This document shows positions 56,223-63,197 of a stretch of 64,000 nucleotides of DNA, one piece after another. This DNA is from Colwellia sp. (GTDB taxonomy: Bacteria; Pseudomonadota; Gammaproteobacteria; Enterobacterales; Alteromonadaceae), in the NCBI GenBank assembly GCA_013215465.1, contig JABSOW010000010.1, positions 84,930 through 148,929 on the forward strand, read 5' to 3'. Both the position numbers and the translations under genes were made by a program. The number at the start of each line of letters is the position of its first letter. Positions within the stretch are counted from its first letter, which is position 1. Under the pieces are notes generated by a model, which was not told the origin of the DNA, searched no databases, and saw only the letters and a program-made list of their open reading frames with translations.

Positions 56223-56390
56223 CGCACTTTAAGTATGCGACTTTGAAGCAACTAATGTTAATAACAACAATATCACTGCTTACTTTTTTTCATTTTAAAT
56301 TTGTTATTCCTGATAAAATAGTGTAATTATTAGACAATACACTTATAAATAAAATTAATTTTAAAGTATCAAAGCACAAGGAACTATGTG

Positions 56391-56768
56391 ATGGAAATCA
56401 ATATTAATAGCTTATTACTTACCAATGATGAGTTGTCTGATCTAGTGAATGAAATGAAATATTTCATTGAAGATGAAACAGATGCCACTGTTAATTTTCT
56501 TAAGCCATCTGATGCTCAACTCATTAACTCATCTGATAAAAATAAAACAAAAGGTGAACCTATAACCCTAGGAGCCTTAACGATAACATTTATTTCTAGC
56601 GGTGCTATGGTCGCATTTTTTGAAATTTTTAAGACCTATTTTGCTCGTGAGCCTTCGCTAGAGATTGAAATTACAAAAAACGATGGAACCAAAATAAAAT
56701 TAAATGCGAAGAATGTAGATGACACTCAAATTAAAGAAGCATTCAAATTTATTAACGAAAATCAATAG
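56391..56768 (+). CDS. EACC1-type effector-associated adaptor
   Basis: A 125-aa protein that matches the effector-associated constant component EACC1: a helical N-terminal part, a hydrophobic segment LGALTITFISSGAMVAFFEI (about 65-84), then FAREPSLEIEITKNDGTKIK, the beta hairpin that typifies this family. EACC1 proteins are constant partners of variable effectors (often peptidases) in bacterial conflict systems, thought to relay an invasion signal. AAGGA 8 bases ahead favours this ATG over the GTG one codon earlier. It ends 8 bases before the caspase gene, forming a two-gene operon. Confidence 0.8.
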   Translation: MEININSLLLTNDELSDLVNEMKYFIEDETDATVNFLKPSDAQLINSSDKNKTKGEPITLGALTITFISSGAMVAFFEIFKTYFAREPSLEIEITKNDGTKIKLNAKNVDDTQIKEAFKFINENQ

Positions 56769-56776
56769 GTATATAT

Positions 56777-59029
56777 ATGACTGTTCAAGGAAGAAAAGTT
56801 GCTGTACTGATTGGGAATATGAACTTCAAAGATGGGGGTCTACACGATTTATCTTGCCCAGAAAATGATGTCCAACAACTTAAAACAACATTGGAAGATG
56901 CAGATACCTGTAATTTTTCTGATGTTGTCACTTTAATAAATCAAAAATCGAGTGAAATATTAGAAGTAACGCATAAGCTCCTAAATACACTTACTAAAAA
57001 TGACACTTTACTGATCTATTACTCTGGGCATGGAAAAACAAGTGGTAGAACCGGAGAATTATACTTAGCCACTAATAACACTGATCTTGAAATATTAGAA
57101 ACCACCGCAATAGCCATTAGCAACCTTCAAAACATAGCTCAGAACTCTAGAAGCAATAAAATCATACTAATATTAGATTGTTGCTACAGTGGTGCTGCGG
57201 GCAAGTCATTAACAAAAGGTTGTTTAGATGACAATTTTCAGTCTTTAGAGGGCACAGGCACAGTTTTAATAACAGCATCTACTGGTATTCAAGTAGCATT
57301 AGAAGGTGAAAATGGCTTAAGCGTATTAACTGATTATATTATTCAAGGTTTAAGTACTGGCGATGCAGATAAAGATAAAGATGGTTATGTTTCTGTATCG
57401 GACTTATATTCCTATGTGCATGAACAAATAAAGAAAAATTATAATCAAGAACCAACTTTTTGGAATAAAGACACGCGCGGTAAAATTAGAATTGCAAAAA
57501 GTAACGTTCAATTAAGACCTGATAGAGCAAAGCGCATTAGCTTATTTTTGTCAAAACTGTATAACGAGCATCAATTAAACTCGGAAGTTTACTTAGACTG
57601 TATACGCATTCTTGCTATAGATGAAAATACACTACAAGGGAATGAAAAAGAAATAGACATGTTGATCAGCAACCTTTTTGTCGATCAAATAAAAATACCT
57701 GACTTTTTATTTCGATGGAAAGAATTAAGTGAGCCACAACCCAAAGCTAATGAATTTAATAAAACAGAGAATTTCCCCCCCGACATTATTACAGCTGTTC
57801 CCCCTTTATCTGCCGGTAATAGCATAGTTAAACCAGAAAAAAAACGTAACTCTGTTATGGGTAAAATAATTAAGAAGTTATATTGGTTTTTCCCTGTACT
57901 AAACGTTGAATTTTTTCTAACCGATTACATTTGGTTCAACGGAAACATGTTAATTCCTCTTATGTTAGTCTCATTTTATTTTAGCATGTCAAATAAAACT
58001 CCACTTAAACTATTGTATTTTATGCCATTAACGATATTTACCTTAGAATTAAGTTATAATTTTAAAATTGGAGGTGGCTTTTCTATTTATTTATTATCAT
58101 TTTTAGCAATTATCACCTTTCATTACTTTGCCAATATTCAAAGGTTCATTTATTCTAAATATGGTTTAGCTACAGCGTTATTAATTCTCTTACTTTTACC
58201 CATATCACTTTATGCAGAACACCCCTTTACCGATGTTCTTGGACTTAACATTTATGTAAGTATCGCCTCTATATTTTTCGTCATTATTGGCGCTTTATCT
58301 ATGCAAACTAAACCTGCATTTTGGCACCGACTCATATTTTTTCTCTGTTTAAGCTCTTTACCTTTTATATATGCTCTTTACCCTGCATTGGAACACTATA
58401 GTTTTTTTGGTGATTTTGAGATTGGGTTAAACAATTATCAATACGATCTCAATTTAATTGTATGGTCGTTAATATCAATATGGTTTGCTAGGGTATATGT
58501 GCAGATAAATCATTCAAAAGTAGTGGTGAGCACGTTGATTGCTGCCTTAACCTGTATGTACTTACAGGCAACTCAAGGACAAATACTATACCGTGCAGCT
58601 GAACCAATTAATGAATACTTAGAGGTATTAAAAGATGATAGCAACAAGAGCTCTATAGATAAAAATCAATCAACAGTAAATAATGCCATTGAATTGATAA
58701 AGATTACAGGTTATCGCTCATCTGAGAAAGTATTGTCGTCGCAATTCTCAATAGTTTTCACCATGATAGCGTTCGCAATTTGGGGGGCAAGGTTAAATCA
58801 ATTTAATAAAAAAGAAGCGCTTAAATGTTTAGGGTATATTACTTTCTTGTACTTAATTCCAGTGTATGGCACTAGGCTATGGTTAGATAATTCGGAGGGT
58901 TTTTGGGTTTTTTTACTGTACGAAATAGAGTATCTATTTATATTGTCAAATATAATAATTGCATATTTTTTTCATTACATTGCGAAAAAAACACTGCGGT
59001 TTGACAACGAGATGAACGCAGAAAAATGA
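56777..59029 (+). CDS. Caspase-like peptidase fused to multi-pass membrane domain
   Basis: A 750-aa protein. Residues about 5-240 form a caspase/metacaspase (C14) domain: IGNMNF, catalytic His85 in LLIYYSGHGK, catalytic Cys136 in ILILDCCYSG, and the late strand TVLITAST. A DADKDKDGYVSVSDLYSYV segment (about 195-213) resembles a calcium-binding loop common in these peptidases. A Pro-rich linker near 340 leads to about ten membrane helices (about 370-745). It is paired with EACC1 directly upstream. The likely role is a death effector in which proteolysis, membrane damage, or both, follow signal relay by EACC1. The membrane part has no family I recognise. Confidence 0.83.
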   Translation: MTVQGRKVAVLIGNMNFKDGGLHDLSCPENDVQQLKTTLEDADTCNFSDVVTLINQKSSEILEVTHKLLNTLTKNDTLLIYYSGHGKTSGRTGELYLATNNTDLEILETTAIAISNLQNIAQNSRSNKIILILDCCYSGAAGKSLTKGCLDDNFQSLEGTGTVLITASTGIQVALEGENGLSVLTDYIIQGLSTGDADKDKDGYVSVSDLYSYVHEQIKKNYNQEPTFWNKDTRGKIRIAKSNVQLRPDRAKRISLFLSKLYNEHQLNSEVYLDCIRILAIDENTLQGNEKEIDMLISNLFVDQIKIPDFLFRWKELSEPQPKANEFNKTENFPPDIITAVPPLSAGNSIVKPEKKRNSVMGKIIKKLYWFFPVLNVEFFLTDYIWFNGNMLIPLMLVSFYFSMSNKTPLKLLYFMPLTIFTLELSYNFKIGGGFSIYLLSFLAIITFHYFANIQRFIYSKYGLATALLILLLLPISLYAEHPFTDVLGLNIYVSIASIFFVIIGALSMQTKPAFWHRLIFFLCLSSLPFIYALYPALEHYSFFGDFEIGLNNYQYDLNLIVWSLISIWFARVYVQINHSKVVVSTLIAALTCMYLQATQGQILYRAAEPINEYLEVLKDDSNKSSIDKNQSTVNNAIELIKITGYRSSEKVLSSQFSIVFTMIAFAIWGARLNQFNKKEALKCLGYITFLYLIPVYGTRLWLDNSEGFWVFLLYEIEYLFILSNIIIAYFFHYIAKKTLRFDNEMNAEK

Positions 59030-59483: not shown

Positions 59484-62400
59484 TTACAAAACCGCTTTCA
59501 ATCGAGCAAAAGTATTCATTTGCTCATTTGCCAATATATCCACGTAATTGGTATTGTTGGCAACAAGTAAATACTGACCATTAGCTTGTTTTTTAACGAC
59601 TCTTAGTAAGTATTGCTCACCGCCATCTTCATCATGCATCTCTATAGCCATAGTTAAACCAGAAATAGAACCGGCATTACTTGGTGTGATCAATTCAAGT
59701 AATAACAAATCACCATCTTCTATGGCATTTTTACCACCATTCATTGAATTACCCGATGCTGTAGCAATAAAATGCATTTCAGGGTTTAATTTCCCATAAC
59801 TGTGACGACTATCAGAAACAAAGTAGCTTTCAATTTCATCATGCTGACTAGTTTTAAAGTGACCACAAGCTATTTTAAGATTTGAATAAAATGGCAGTTC
59901 TATACCTGACTCTACTTCTACTACTTTTTGTATTAACTCATCATTAGCAGCAGATTCTATAGGCTGTATAAATTCAGATGCTTGGCTATTTTCTGAATGG
60001 CCTAGTAACACTTTGAAGTCATCACTAGTTAACTCAATTTTAAATTTTTTAAAGTATTTAATGCCATCACCAATCATCTGATCAGTTATCTTTGTTAAAT
60101 CTGCTAGGTTTAACTTTTCCCATAACACCGGATCAAACGAAATAATATTGAGATCTTTGCATTGATAAAAGAAACGTTTACGTTCAAATTTTTCGAAAGG
60201 ATTTTCTCGTATACTTTTTTTAAGGTAATTAACATCAGTTAAATTTTTAGTATTATTTAGTGGGTTGTTAGGCTTTTCCGCTTTACCGAACTTATTTGAT
60301 AATCCTTGATAAAAACCTCGGTACCTTTTAACTAAATCATCCAGCGATTGTTCTCCACGATCATTACAATGATTAACCATTGCCAATAAAAAAATAATTT
60401 TATATGAAAATGTATAATCTCTTTTTTCTAAAAACTCATAAAAATCTAACTTACGGGTTTGCTCTGTTCTGCTTTTTATTTTCTTATCTTTTTTAATCGT
60501 TTCAACTTGTTGCTCAGAGAAGTAATTAAGTGTTTTTTTTCCAAAAGGCAATGTTCGGTGAGCGCTAATGTCTCCTTTTTTTAGCCATGACTTTATCGTA
60601 CCCGTTGAGACAAAAAGCTCTCTGGCTAATTGCTCTTCATTTAATAAATCGCCAAACTCTTGTTCAAAGTTAAAAATATTAATAGGCTCTAAACGGCGCT
60701 CTACCTCCCATAAGCCATCTAAAACAACTAACTCTTGATTAGGAACACCTTCAACATTGTTTACTAAATCTGAAAACGGTTGATACAGTCCAAAATTAAA
60801 TAAGCCATGAACAGACCAAGGTTGTAACGCCGAACTGTAGCTATCAACCACATCAATAACATAAAGTGCTTCTTTACCTGGATAATTACGCGTGCCTCTG
60901 CCAAGTTGCTGGGTATATAACACCTTAGACATAGTTGGCCTTGCCATGACAATCACAGAAGTTTGAGGGGAATCCCAGCCTTCATTAAGAAGATCACAGG
61001 CGCATAAAAATTGAATAGCCCCTTGTCTATATTCGTCTAATGCACCTCTATCGGTACCGTGTACCGCCGCAGCTTTAATACCTTGTTTATTTAACAATAC
61101 TGACATTCGTTTGGCGTGCTTTATATCAACACAAAAAATAACACCTTGTTTATTCAGTAGACGTTTATTTGAGCTGTTAGTATTTGTTTTTTCTGTAAAA
61201 TATTTTACTAACAAATCGACAACTAATAGATCTCGAGATGGTACTTGCACTGTTTTTTGTAAATCACTTTTTACAAACTCTTTTCCGTTAAAGCGCACAT
61301 TTGAAAGATCAATATTGGAAAGTAATCTAAACGCTCTTATTTGAGGAACTAGCTTTTGTTTTATCGCATCTTCCAAAGATAAGTTTATGTGGTAACTACC
61401 AAAAATATCTTCTAACTTTTGTTGATCTAAACGTTGGTCAGTTGCAGTTAATCCTAAAAGACTCCGTGGATTATAATACTCCAATACGTTTCTAAGACCG
61501 TGAGCCGCCGCACGGTGAGTTTCATCAACTAAAATATAATCAAAATACTCGGAAGATACATTTCTAAAATGTCTTAAAACATAGGCACTGGTTTGCACAA
61601 TGACATCAAGTTTTAAACCATAAAAATCATCACCTACGCGAATCTCAGGCAATTGAGATTCTACGCGGTTAATTAGCTGCTTTTTTAACTCTGTACTTGG
61701 TACTATAGCCAGTGCTCTTTTAATATTACCTTGAGCAAACTCTTGTCTAAAGTCTTCAATAAAAACCTCAGTTTTTCCTGTCCCCGTAGGTAATACAATT
61801 AGGAACGTTTGTTCACCCTGAGCTCTTTTTTCTTGCAGTGACTTAATCGCCTTTTGTTGATGATCGTAAAGTGAAAAATCTACCTTTCGAATAGAACGGT
61901 ATAACGGGGCTGATTGAAAATATTGGCTATTACCAAAATACTCTTTAATTTGGTCTTCAAATTTAAATTCGTCTTGCATCCCTCTATTTGACCAACGAAA
62001 AACATGATAACCATCATTAACCAGAGAGTTTTGTTTAAATAATTGCGATCGATATTTTTTTTCAGAAACTATTGCCGAAAGAGGATGATGATATTGCTCA
62101 CCATTTAATTCAATTGCGATAGGTTGTGAATTTCGGTGTAAAACATAGTCGATATAGCGTCGATGGCCTTGGCGATCAACATAGGGAGCTTCTGCTTGTA
62201 AGGCGTGAATATGTTTTGCGCCAAATACTTGTTCAAATGAAAGAGCAAAATTAAACTCTGGTGGTGTAGGATCTATATGGCTCTCACTACGATCTGCACC
62301 GTAATTTTTGAGATCAAGTTCCTCAATACTATTTGACAAAAACAATGCTAACTCTGTACTTAAAAGTGTCATGTTGGTTGCTAAAAAACGATATAAACCA

Positions 62401-62600
62401 TTAAACTGGTGCATTATTCTATTTTGATAGCTTGTGTAATCAACGTATTGAAAACTTGAAAGAGATAAATTATAGAGTGTTGAATCAATTAAAATGGCGG
62501 GCTTATTTTTATCACTTAAATAAAGACGACCAACAGGAACTATTTCTGATAATGAGTAATTATAGTCAGCTAATAGGCTATCTATTTTATTTAGAGTCAT
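59484..62600 (-). CDS. Nuclease - SF2 helicase - HTH - S24 peptidase fusion
   Basis: A 1038-aa protein with four recognisable parts. Residues about 110-215 are a DUF559/Vsr-like nuclease (RRYIDYVLHR, IAIELNGEQYHH, then GYHVFRWS). About 245-585 is an SF2 helicase: motif I LPTGTGKTEVF (270-280), DEXH box VDETHRAAA (358-366), motif III LTAT, motif VI QQLGRGTRN. About 654-700 is a helix-turn-helix (EEQLARELFVSTGTIKSWLK). About 900-1038 is an S24/LexA-like peptidase fold (TASGNSMN with Ser952, and LLRVVKK with the Lys). It starts 9 bases after a methyltransferase gene on the same strand. The S24 part suggests self-cleavage or damage-type sensing that controls a restriction-like nuclease-helicase. 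A phage-restriction role is inferred. Confidence 0.8.
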   Translation of the reverse strand: MTLNKIDSLLADYNYSLSEIVPVGRLYLSDKNKPAILIDSTLYNLSLSSFQYVDYTSYQNRIMHQFNGLYRFLATNMTLLSTELALFLSNSIEELDLKNYGADRSESHIDPTPPEFNFALSFEQVFGAKHIHALQAEAPYVDRQGHRRYIDYVLHRNSQPIAIELNGEQYHHPLSAIVSEKKYRSQLFKQNSLVNDGYHVFRWSNRGMQDEFKFEDQIKEYFGNSQYFQSAPLYRSIRKVDFSLYDHQQKAIKSLQEKRAQGEQTFLIVLPTGTGKTEVFIEDFRQEFAQGNIKRALAIVPSTELKKQLINRVESQLPEIRVGDDFYGLKLDVIVQTSAYVLRHFRNVSSEYFDYILVDETHRAAAHGLRNVLEYYNPRSLLGLTATDQRLDQQKLEDIFGSYHINLSLEDAIKQKLVPQIRAFRLLSNIDLSNVRFNGKEFVKSDLQKTVQVPSRDLLVVDLLVKYFTEKTNTNSSNKRLLNKQGVIFCVDIKHAKRMSVLLNKQGIKAAAVHGTDRGALDEYRQGAIQFLCACDLLNEGWDSPQTSVIVMARPTMSKVLYTQQLGRGTRNYPGKEALYVIDVVDSYSSALQPWSVHGLFNFGLYQPFSDLVNNVEGVPNQELVVLDGLWEVERRLEPINIFNFEQEFGDLLNEEQLARELFVSTGTIKSWLKKGDISAHRTLPFGKKTLNYFSEQQVETIKKDKKIKSRTEQTRKLDFYEFLEKRDYTFSYKIIFLLAMVNHCNDRGEQSLDDLVKRYRGFYQGLSNKFGKAEKPNNPLNNTKNLTDVNYLKKSIRENPFEKFERKRFFYQCKDLNIISFDPVLWEKLNLADLTKITDQMIGDGIKYFKKFKIELTSDDFKVLLGHSENSQASEFIQPIESAANDELIQKVVEVESGIELPFYSNLKIACGHFKTSQHDEIESYFVSDSRHSYGKLNPEMHFIATASGNSMNGGKNAIEDGDLLLLELITPSNAGSISGLTMAIEMHDEDGGEQYLLRVVKKQANGQYLLVANNTNYVDILANEQMNTFARLKAVL

Positions 62601-62609
62601 GAATAATCT

Positions 62610-63197
62610 CTACACTTTTATTAAAATAGCATTAAGCCATTTTTCATTGTGCCGATCAGGACGCACATCGTCAGTGATCCAAGTTTTATCAATCACCAAG
62701 CCTGTATTTTTAATAAAAATTGATAGCCGTTCTTCATCTGCATTGGTAAAGTTTCGACCATTACGACTGGTATCATTATTGCCGTATTTAAAAGAACAAT
62801 AAAAGATCCCTCCTCCCTTTAACTGTTTAGCAAGATTAGTAAAAGAAGCAGATATTTTGTTGCTTGGCACATGGAGTAAAGAAGCACATGCCCAAATAGC
62901 ATCAAACAAAGGTTGTAGAGATTGATTTTGAAAATTTTCAAACGTATTTAATGAAACGTTTATTCCTGTGTATTCACTTGCTTTTGCAACAAGTGCTTCA
63001 CTGGCATCGAATGCAGTAACTTGAAAACCTTGTTTGATAAAAAAATAAGTATCCCGACCTGAGCCACAACCAGCATCAAGAATATGAGAGTCACTTATAA
63101 GTAATGGTAAGAACTGCTGATAAATAGCAGACAGATCAGCATTTACAGTATCGTTAAAGAAACAATTAGCATTTTCATTATAAAAATCATTCGACAT
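62610..63197 (-). CDS. Class I SAM-dependent methyltransferase (TehB-like)
   Basis: A 195-aa methyltransferase. Motif I is HILDAGCGSGRDTYFF (about 39-54), motif II VTAFDASEALV, and the motif IV region FDAIWACASLLHVP. The later YGNNDTSRNGRNFTNADEE block is typical of a small group found next to helicase-nuclease genes. No DNA-methylase catalytic motif (NPPY, DPPY, PC) is present, so it more likely modifies a small molecule, RNA or protein than DNA. It is directly upstream of, and co-transcribed with, the nuclease-helicase fusion. Confidence 0.82.
   Translation of the reverse strand: MSNDFYNENANCFFNDTVNADLSAIYQQFLPLLISDSHILDAGCGSGRDTYFFIKQGFQVTAFDASEALVAKASEYTGINVSLNTFENFQNQSLQPLFDAIWACASLLHVPSNKISASFTNLAKQLKGGGIFYCSFKYGNNDTSRNGRNFTNADEERLSIFIKNTGLVIDKTWITDDVRPDRHNEKWLNAILIKV

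What the first reader, a model, noticed from the sequence alone, without database searches (positions are those of the whole stretch)
59484..63197. Methyltransferase plus a nuclease-helicase-HTH-S24 fusion
One 1038-aa chain joins a DUF559/Vsr-like nuclease, an SF2 helicase, a helix-turn-helix and a LexA-like S24 peptidase domain with Ser952 and a Lys after LLRVV, in operon with a TehB-like methyltransferase. S24 domains normally sit on repressors or UmuD. Their fusion to a restriction-like machine suggests activity released or removed by RecA-type or other damage signals.
Basis: partly seen in the sequence, partly recalled or inferred. Interest (0 to 1): 0.75.

Follow-up and report, generated by a model that had tools for sequence, protein, structure and literature searches.

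The report
Nuclease with uncleavable LexA-like tail
This marine bacterium carries a two-gene cassette, a methyltransferase next to one long protein that joins a predicted nuclease and a helicase-type motor to a LexA-like tail in which the catalytic lysine is replaced by arginine; because relatives keep the methyltransferase and the tail but swap the predicted nuclease between them, the tail is likely a non-cutting dock, predicted to bring interchangeable DNA-cutting enzymes to RecA-coated DNA during phage attack.

Summary
The 1038-aa chain is real and intact: predicted PD-(D/E)XK-like nuclease, SF2 helicase, weak HTH, helical part, and a C-terminal domain with a predicted LexA/CI/UmuD fold. 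It lies 9 bases after a TehB-like methyltransferase. Ser952 and a UmuD-like Cys912-Gly913 bond are conserved, but the general-base lysine is Arg1000: of 217 copies of this S24 subfamily (redundant), 217 keep the serine, 216 have Arg (one ends before it), none Lys. A published LexA with this very change (K156R) is described as uncleavable, so release by self-cleavage is not the best reading. The subfamily is a portable module: it ends PD-(D/E)XK-helicases, PLD-helicases with or without the DUF3427 reader, and HNH nucleases; 52 of 58 loci have the same methyltransferase just upstream or fused. In one genus, in shared chromosomal surroundings, DNA similarity within the cassette is confined to the methyltransferase gene and the last ~410 bases (the S24 domain), while the core is unrelated. 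Best reading: a restriction-like cassette with constant ends and a swappable nuclease, the tail being a natural non-cleaving LexA-type domain, probably docking on RecA filaments (inferred, untested).

The parts
62610..63197 (-). TehB-like class I SAM methyltransferase, 195 aa, first gene of the cassette
   Evidence: same methyltransferase family just upstream or fused in 52 of 58 S24-A loci; 0 of 51 carry DNA-methyltransferase motif IV
59484..62600 (-). 1038-aa effector: predicted nuclease + SF2 helicase + HTH + helical part + S24-A domain
61926..62303 (-). predicted PD-(D/E)XK-like nuclease, residues about 100-225 (D151, E164, N166, H171, H172, K189 invariant in 13 aligned)
   Evidence: profile match below cut-off
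60831..61877 (-). SF2 helicase, residues 242-590; Walker Lys276, DETH 359-362
   Evidence: Foldseek best SauUSI 7clg_B, then RadD
60483..60653 (-). HTH (MerR/excisionase-like), residues 650-706, weak by profile
60006..60482 (-). conserved helical region of unknown role, residues 707-865; S24-less relatives end about here
59487..59906 (-). S24-A domain, residues 899-1038: LexA/CI/UmuD-type C-terminal domain with Ser952 and Arg1000
59862..59867 (-). Cys912-Gly913, aligned with the UmuD cleavage bond
   Evidence: alignment (weak, E 0.013); C 216 of 217, G 217 of 217
59745..59747 (-). Ser952 codon, nucleophile position
   Evidence: Ser in 217 of 217
59601..59603 (-). Arg1000 codon, at the general-base Lys position of LexA/UmuD
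   Evidence: Arg in 216 of 217, one gap, no Lys; alignments

Best explanation
This is a two-gene, restriction-like cassette made of a methyltransferase, a swappable core (here a predicted PD-(D/E)XK-like nuclease plus an SF2 helicase) and a constant C-terminal LexA-type domain whose catalytic lysine is replaced by arginine; that domain is likely non-cleaving and predicted to dock the nuclease on RecA-ssDNA filaments. Shown by sequence: the gene order, the fusion, the Arg, the conserved Ser and Cys-Gly, and the exchange of cores between constant ends. Inferred: that the chain cuts DNA, that the tail does not cleave itself, that it binds RecA filaments (as LexA, CI and UmuD do), that docking aims or arms the nuclease at ssDNA of invading or damaged DNA, that the methyltransferase restrains or tunes the enzyme (it has no DNA-methyltransferase signature), and that the purpose is defence against phages or plasmids.
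Against: No RecA contact was modelled or measured. Invariant Ser952 and Cys-Gly could equally mean that self-cleavage persists with Arg as an odd base. K-type S24 domains sit at the same place of 26 related nuclease-helicases, 25 with Lys and one ending before that position, so cleavage may matter in that branch. 57 of 121 aligned chains (query included; some may be fragments) have no S24, and some S24-less loci keep the methyltransferase (L024-L027), so the tail is not needed for the core to be kept. One of seven profile pairings that reach the column is shifted by one residue, though it offers no Lys either. The full model is only moderately confident between domains (pTM 0.46). No LexA box upstream. 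The 58 loci are not independent (many from one family), and the methyltransferase-S24 correlation shares species ancestry.
Confidence: 0.4

Rival explanations
1. The S24-A domain is an active self-cleaving switch: a Ser-Arg pair cuts Cys912-Gly913 slowly or only when RecA* or another partner forces it, and this frees or inactivates the nuclease.
For: Ser 217/217, Gly 217/217, Cys 216/217; Cys-Gly aligns with the UmuD cut; the model resembles hyper-cleavable forms of CI and LexA; a sister branch has Ser and Lys (25 of 26).
Against: Arg in 216 of 217; LexA K156R reported uncleavable; cleavage at 912 would leave a 912-aa chain with nuclease and helicase, and S24-less relatives show that such a chain is kept by evolution, so loss of the tail need not switch it off.
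Confidence: 0.25
2. The S24-A domain is only a dimerisation or structural clamp (LexA, CI and UmuD domains all dimerise) that pairs two nucleases and perhaps binds the methyltransferase; RecA plays no part.
For: The constant partner of the domain is the methyltransferase (52 of 58), and their identities correlate even between different cores (r 0.35, 783 pairs, 0 of 2000 permutations as high); SauUSI requires two sites (PMC3874153 passage).
Against: A plain clamp would not obviously need the cleavage-site segment IACGHF and the nucleophile loop to be among the most conserved parts; shared species history explains part of the correlation.
Confidence: 0.22
3. An ordinary type IV restriction enzyme of the SauUSI kind with a decayed, functionally neutral LexA appendage.
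For: Best whole-chain fold match SauUSI 7clg_B; PADLOC best hit mREase_IV over the helicase; S24-less relatives exist.
Against: The window chain has no PLD or DUF3427 match by Pfam; strong conservation across four core types and 15 aligned loci is not decay.
Confidence: 0.08

Closest known systems
LexA / lambda CI / UmuD C-terminal (S24) domains
   Same: Fold with cleavage-site region, GxSM serine, Cys-Gly bond as in UmuD; RecA-filament complexes are among the nearest solved structures
   Different: Catalytic Lys is Arg; sits on nucleases instead of a DNA-binding repressor or polymerase subunit
SauUSI-type IV restriction enzymes (PLD-helicase-DUF3427; mREase_IV)
   Same: SF2 helicase and best whole-chain fold match; sister S24-A proteins are PLD-helicases, eight of 58 loci with DUF3427 after the S24
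   Different: Here the nuclease is PD-(D/E)XK-like and no reader is found; S24-A and a coupled methyltransferase are added
RadD / EcoAI HsdR-type SF2 helicases
   Same: Helicase core
   Different: NCBIfam equivalog scores listed are far below cut-off (best 90 of 550 bits)
K-type ('IAAG') S24 fused to the same nuclease-helicase family (26 of 120 relatives, e.g. P0114)
   Same: Same chain plan, S24 at the C-terminus, 44-49% identity
   Different: Ser-Lys pair intact, shorter nucleophile loop; gene context could not be fetched

Membership tests
S24/LexA-like peptidase family | Profile match over curated cut-off | tested here: met
   PF00717 31.6 bits, cut-off 23.3
S24/LexA-like peptidase family | LexA-type fold with cleavage-site region | tested here: met
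S24/LexA-like peptidase family | Serine nucleophile in GxSM | tested here: met
   217 of 217
S24/LexA-like peptidase family | General-base lysine (LexA Lys156) | tested here: not met
   Arg in 216 of 217, 1 gap; MAFFT and six of seven profile pairings place it on the Lys, the seventh one residue off with no Lys there
S24/LexA-like peptidase family | Self-cleavage activity | not testable with these tools
   Needs protein
SauUSI-type IV restriction enzyme | SF2 helicase of this clade | tested here: met
   mREase_IV E 1.9e-33 over 245-588; 7clg_B best fold match
SauUSI-type IV restriction enzyme | N-terminal PLD nuclease | tested here: not met
   No PLDc_2 match in the window chain; present in sister chains
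SauUSI-type IV restriction enzyme | DUF3427 reader domain | tested here: not met
   No PF11907 match in the window chain
SauUSI-type IV restriction enzyme | Cleavage that depends on DNA modification | not testable with these tools
   Needs protein
Classical restriction-modification pair | Partner is a DNA methyltransferase | tested here: not met
   0 of 51 partner methyltransferases carry [DNS]PP[YFW] or PC[QNS]
PD-(D/E)XK nuclease (DUF559/MTES_1575-like) | Profile match and catalytic core | tested here: inconclusive
   Best E 0.054, below cut-off, 4 of 13 members; a PDB profile search found nothing below E 0.2; secondary-structure order and conserved residues fit
LexA-regulated (SOS) gene | CTGT-N8-ACAG box upstream | tested here: not met
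   1 of 49 upstream regions, none for the window cassette; host lexA and umuD-like loci positive
RecA-filament-binding protein | Binding to RecA-ssDNA | not testable with these tools
   Inferred from fold only

The most novel reading that the evidence does not exclude
A naturally uncleavable LexA-type domain has become a portable targeting tag: bacteria attach it to interchangeable nucleases (PD-(D/E)XK-helicase, PLD-helicase, HNH) and pair it with one methyltransferase, so that RecA filaments on incoming or broken DNA, instead of triggering self-cleavage, become the landing platform that aims a restriction enzyme; the constant-ends, swappable-core layout would make it a new modular defence type.
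Probability: 0.35. Interest if true: 0.87.

Novelty: new variant of a known kind. Interest (0 to 1): 0.72.

Why it matters
LexA, CI and UmuD domains are textbook self-cleaving switches. A conserved family that keeps the fold, the serine and the cleavage bond but replaces the base by arginine, and that rides on exchangeable nucleases, would show the fold used as a dock rather than a fuse. It would link restriction to the recombination state of the DNA, gives a natural counterpart of laboratory LexA K156R, and its K-type cousins on the same nuclease-helicase allow a direct comparison of forms with and without the Ser-Lys pair.

Tried and rejected
Protease-release model as the main reading: lowered by Lys-to-Arg. 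SOS transcription: not supported for lack of boxes (in the window 13 matches with one mismatch against 16.4 expected, the only exact one inside the neighbouring caspase gene). Classical R-M pair: rejected, partner has no DNA-methyltransferase motif. S24 as a simple replacement of the DUF3427 reader: rejected, 8 of 58 loci carry both. A phage attachment site inside the S24 gene: suspected because G123 has the domain split 38 kb apart; the insert carries ORFs that look like MuA and MuB (by eye, not searched) and the compared ends share no repeat longer than 11 bases, so a Mu-like insertion fits. Context of the K-type branch: viral contigs, plasmids (325 records, none covering 80% of the query), 303 class and 299 phylum genomes at E <= 1e-120 gave no K-type locus. 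Promoter/terminator scan: at shuffle level, uninformative. Literature: searches listed no paper on an S24-nuclease/helicase fusion or an S24-methyltransferase cassette (for 66 I saw 15 of 19 titles and abstract starts; for 100 the one paper is about Mu-like phage repressors, passages seen). DUF3427 is in 2 papers, of which I saw passages; the find counted no S24 or LexA in either. This covers the held open-access library only. That LexA K156R may cleave at high pH is recall, not from a call. The C-terminal-domain dimers of LexA, CI and UmuD named in a rival are recall too.

Limits of counts: dropped before counts were duplicate loci L037 and L040 and broken or partial S24 copies (G592, G676, G736, G823, G186, a second partial copy in G073). 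L028 is counted as a miss although its methyltransferase lies before the first piece of its broken gene. Two contig-end copies (L100, L105) were classed as PLD-helicase by their helicase alone. Gene starts are mechanical (first start codon), so overlaps of up to 78 bases may be start-site artefacts. The 217 copies overlap between protein and genome sources. The 77 flanking and 80 control proteins come from 20 of the 58 loci; the tool lists 25 of the 52 families hit and not the number of different proteins behind them, and many of the 52 are overlapping DNA-methyltransferase models, so that contrast is weak. S24-less Alteromonas relatives have only a distant methyltransferase (26-29%: L029, L031, L032) or none (L030) upstream.
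Full report
What is there. Window 59484-62600 (-) is one open frame of 1038 aa and 62610-63197 (-) a 195-aa methyltransferase directly before it, 9 bases apart. Pfam finds ResIII and Helicase_C (242-571) and Peptidase_S24 (904-1026) over their cut-offs, an HTH below cut-off, and a methyltransferase of the Methyltransf_25/TehB group. The host genome is a 4.7 Mb assembly and the window ends exactly at the end of its contig. An AF2 model of the whole chain has mean pLDDT 79 and pTM 0.46; its best Foldseek match is the type IV restriction enzyme SauUSI, followed by RadD. The N-terminal domain is probably a PD-(D/E)XK nuclease, but only a below-cut-off Pfam match (MTES_1575, 4 of 13 relatives), element order and conserved residues speak for it; a profile search of the PDB gave nothing below E 0.2.

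S24-A is a portable module. A second protein search, with an HNH relative as query, found the same module on HNH nucleases, on PLD-helicases with DUF3427 and on PLD chains without a helicase (120 of 264 hits listed). Profile searches of whole genomes found it in 45 of 395 genomes of the host's family (41 strong), 8 of 369 of the class (7 strong) and 8 of 398 of the phylum (6 strong full-length ones; the others are the prophage-broken G123 and a fragment) (the samples overlap). In the class sample, seven matches have E below 1e-56 and the only other is 8e-4, so the subfamily stands apart from ordinary S24 proteins.

The methyltransferase is the fixed partner. In 58 distinct S24-A loci it lies upstream on the same strand (49; 48 with start-to-end offsets of -78 to +34 bases, one of 333) or is fused to the N-terminus (3): 52 of 58. 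The six others are two contig ends, one broken helicase gene, one truncated methyltransferase and two loci with a methyltransferase about 4 kb away on the other side. By core: HNH 19 of 19, PD-(D/E)XK-helicase 8 of 9, PLD-helicase 19 of 22, PLD-helicase-DUF3427 6 of 8. Of eight S24-less relatives of the window protein, three have it upstream (L025-L027), one beside it on the other strand (L024), three only a distant one (26-29%) and one none. None of 51 partners has a DNA-methyltransferase motif.

Constant ends, swappable core. A tree of 57 S24-A domains needs 14 changes of core type where 3 is the least possible. In seven loci of one genus the domains lie close together, 92-99% identical in the cross-core pairs listed, yet the cores are HNH, PLD-helicase or PD-(D/E)XK-helicase. 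Pairwise DNA comparison (six pairs, one of them with the same core as a control, which aligns throughout) shows, for L123 against L120, 79% identity from -756 to -34 (the methyltransferase), 86% over the last 410 bases (the S24 domain), nothing between, and flanks of 93% and 90%. L128 against L123 and L122 against L128 give the same picture with upstream flanks of 91% and 87%; L128 against L114 and L109 against L113 show the two constant ends without alignable far flanks. Across pairs with different cores, S24 and methyltransferase identities correlate (r 0.35; 0 of 2000 permutations as high; species ancestry not removed).

Context. Of 77 proteins flanking 20 of the cassettes, a few hit PADLOC models at E <= 1e-20 (52 families in all, 25 listed: DNA methyltransferases, a type II restriction enzyme, AbiEii, a candidate system; no family in more than 2 proteins); of 80 control proteins from the same genomes, one did. 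This is suggestive only. Of seven annotated plasmid stretches looked at, three lie beside defence genes: an S24-A cassette beside an ABC-three-component system (56), a methyltransferase-HNH pair without S24 beside CRISPR genes (59), and an HNH gene without S24 beside McrC and a type I methylase (62). In the window the neighbour is a caspase-EACC1 pair, a two-gene conflict system described by Kaur et al. (PMC7159879, passages seen).

Mechanism. The arginine is the same change as LexA K156R, which a paper calls uncleavable (PMC5760743, one passage). In another study the C-terminal domain of LexA(K156A) was the only form with stable RecA-filament binding (PMC3834820, passages). There is precedent for the superfamily losing its dyad and keeping a binding role (SipA of S. 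pyogenes, PMC12984324, passages). I therefore think that S24-A is a dock, not a fuse: it keeps the cleft, serine and cleavage segment because these are needed for the RecA-bound conformation, but it does not cut. The methyltransferase probably tunes or restrains the enzyme. The functional claims of this paragraph are inference; the rivals are a slow Ser-Arg self-cleavage and a plain dimer clamp.

Novelty. No name for this cassette came from Pfam, NCBIfam, PADLOC or PHROGs, nor from the paper searches (open-access library only). All parts are known kinds; the combination, the arginine and the constant-end layout appear to be new.

Noticed in passing
56388-59029 (+): EACC1-like protein (126 aa, below Pfam cut-off) followed by a caspase-domain protein (750 aa, NCBIfam caspase_w_EACC1 over cut-off): a neighbouring conflict system of a described kind.
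   Followed up: partly
L049:4432-8310: One 1292-aa chain joins Nudix (PADLOC candidate PDC-S07), methyltransferase, PLD nuclease, helicase and S24-A: the cassette in one protein.
   Followed up: partly
L146-L148 (G123:C1:3103500-3150000): A Mu-like prophage (MuA-, MuB- and virion-looking ORFs by eye only) of about 38 kb interrupts the S24 coding region of a cassette.
   Followed up: partly
L140:4678-6050; L142:3580-5047: In two betaproteobacterial plasmids an HNH relative without S24 is preceded by a HIT-family protein instead of the methyltransferase; in one a SOS-response-associated peptidase gene follows.
   Followed up: no
L138, L139, L143: In Pseudoalteromonas secondary replicons a methyltransferase-HNH pair or a methyltransferase-helicase-S24 cassette lies within 4 kb of an ABC-F ATPase gene: a possible hotspot.
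   Followed up: no
L028 / L040: The Colwellia maritima copy of the window gene is broken into three open frames while its methyltransferase is intact.
   Followed up: no
L039:13103-13327: A second, partial S24-A copy (last 75 residues) lies 4 kb downstream of an intact cassette.
   Followed up: no
P0094, P0095, P0097-P0120: A sister branch of the same nuclease-helicase (26 proteins) carries a different S24 type with an intact Ser-Lys pair in 25; the 26th (P0109) ends before the Lys.
   Followed up: partly
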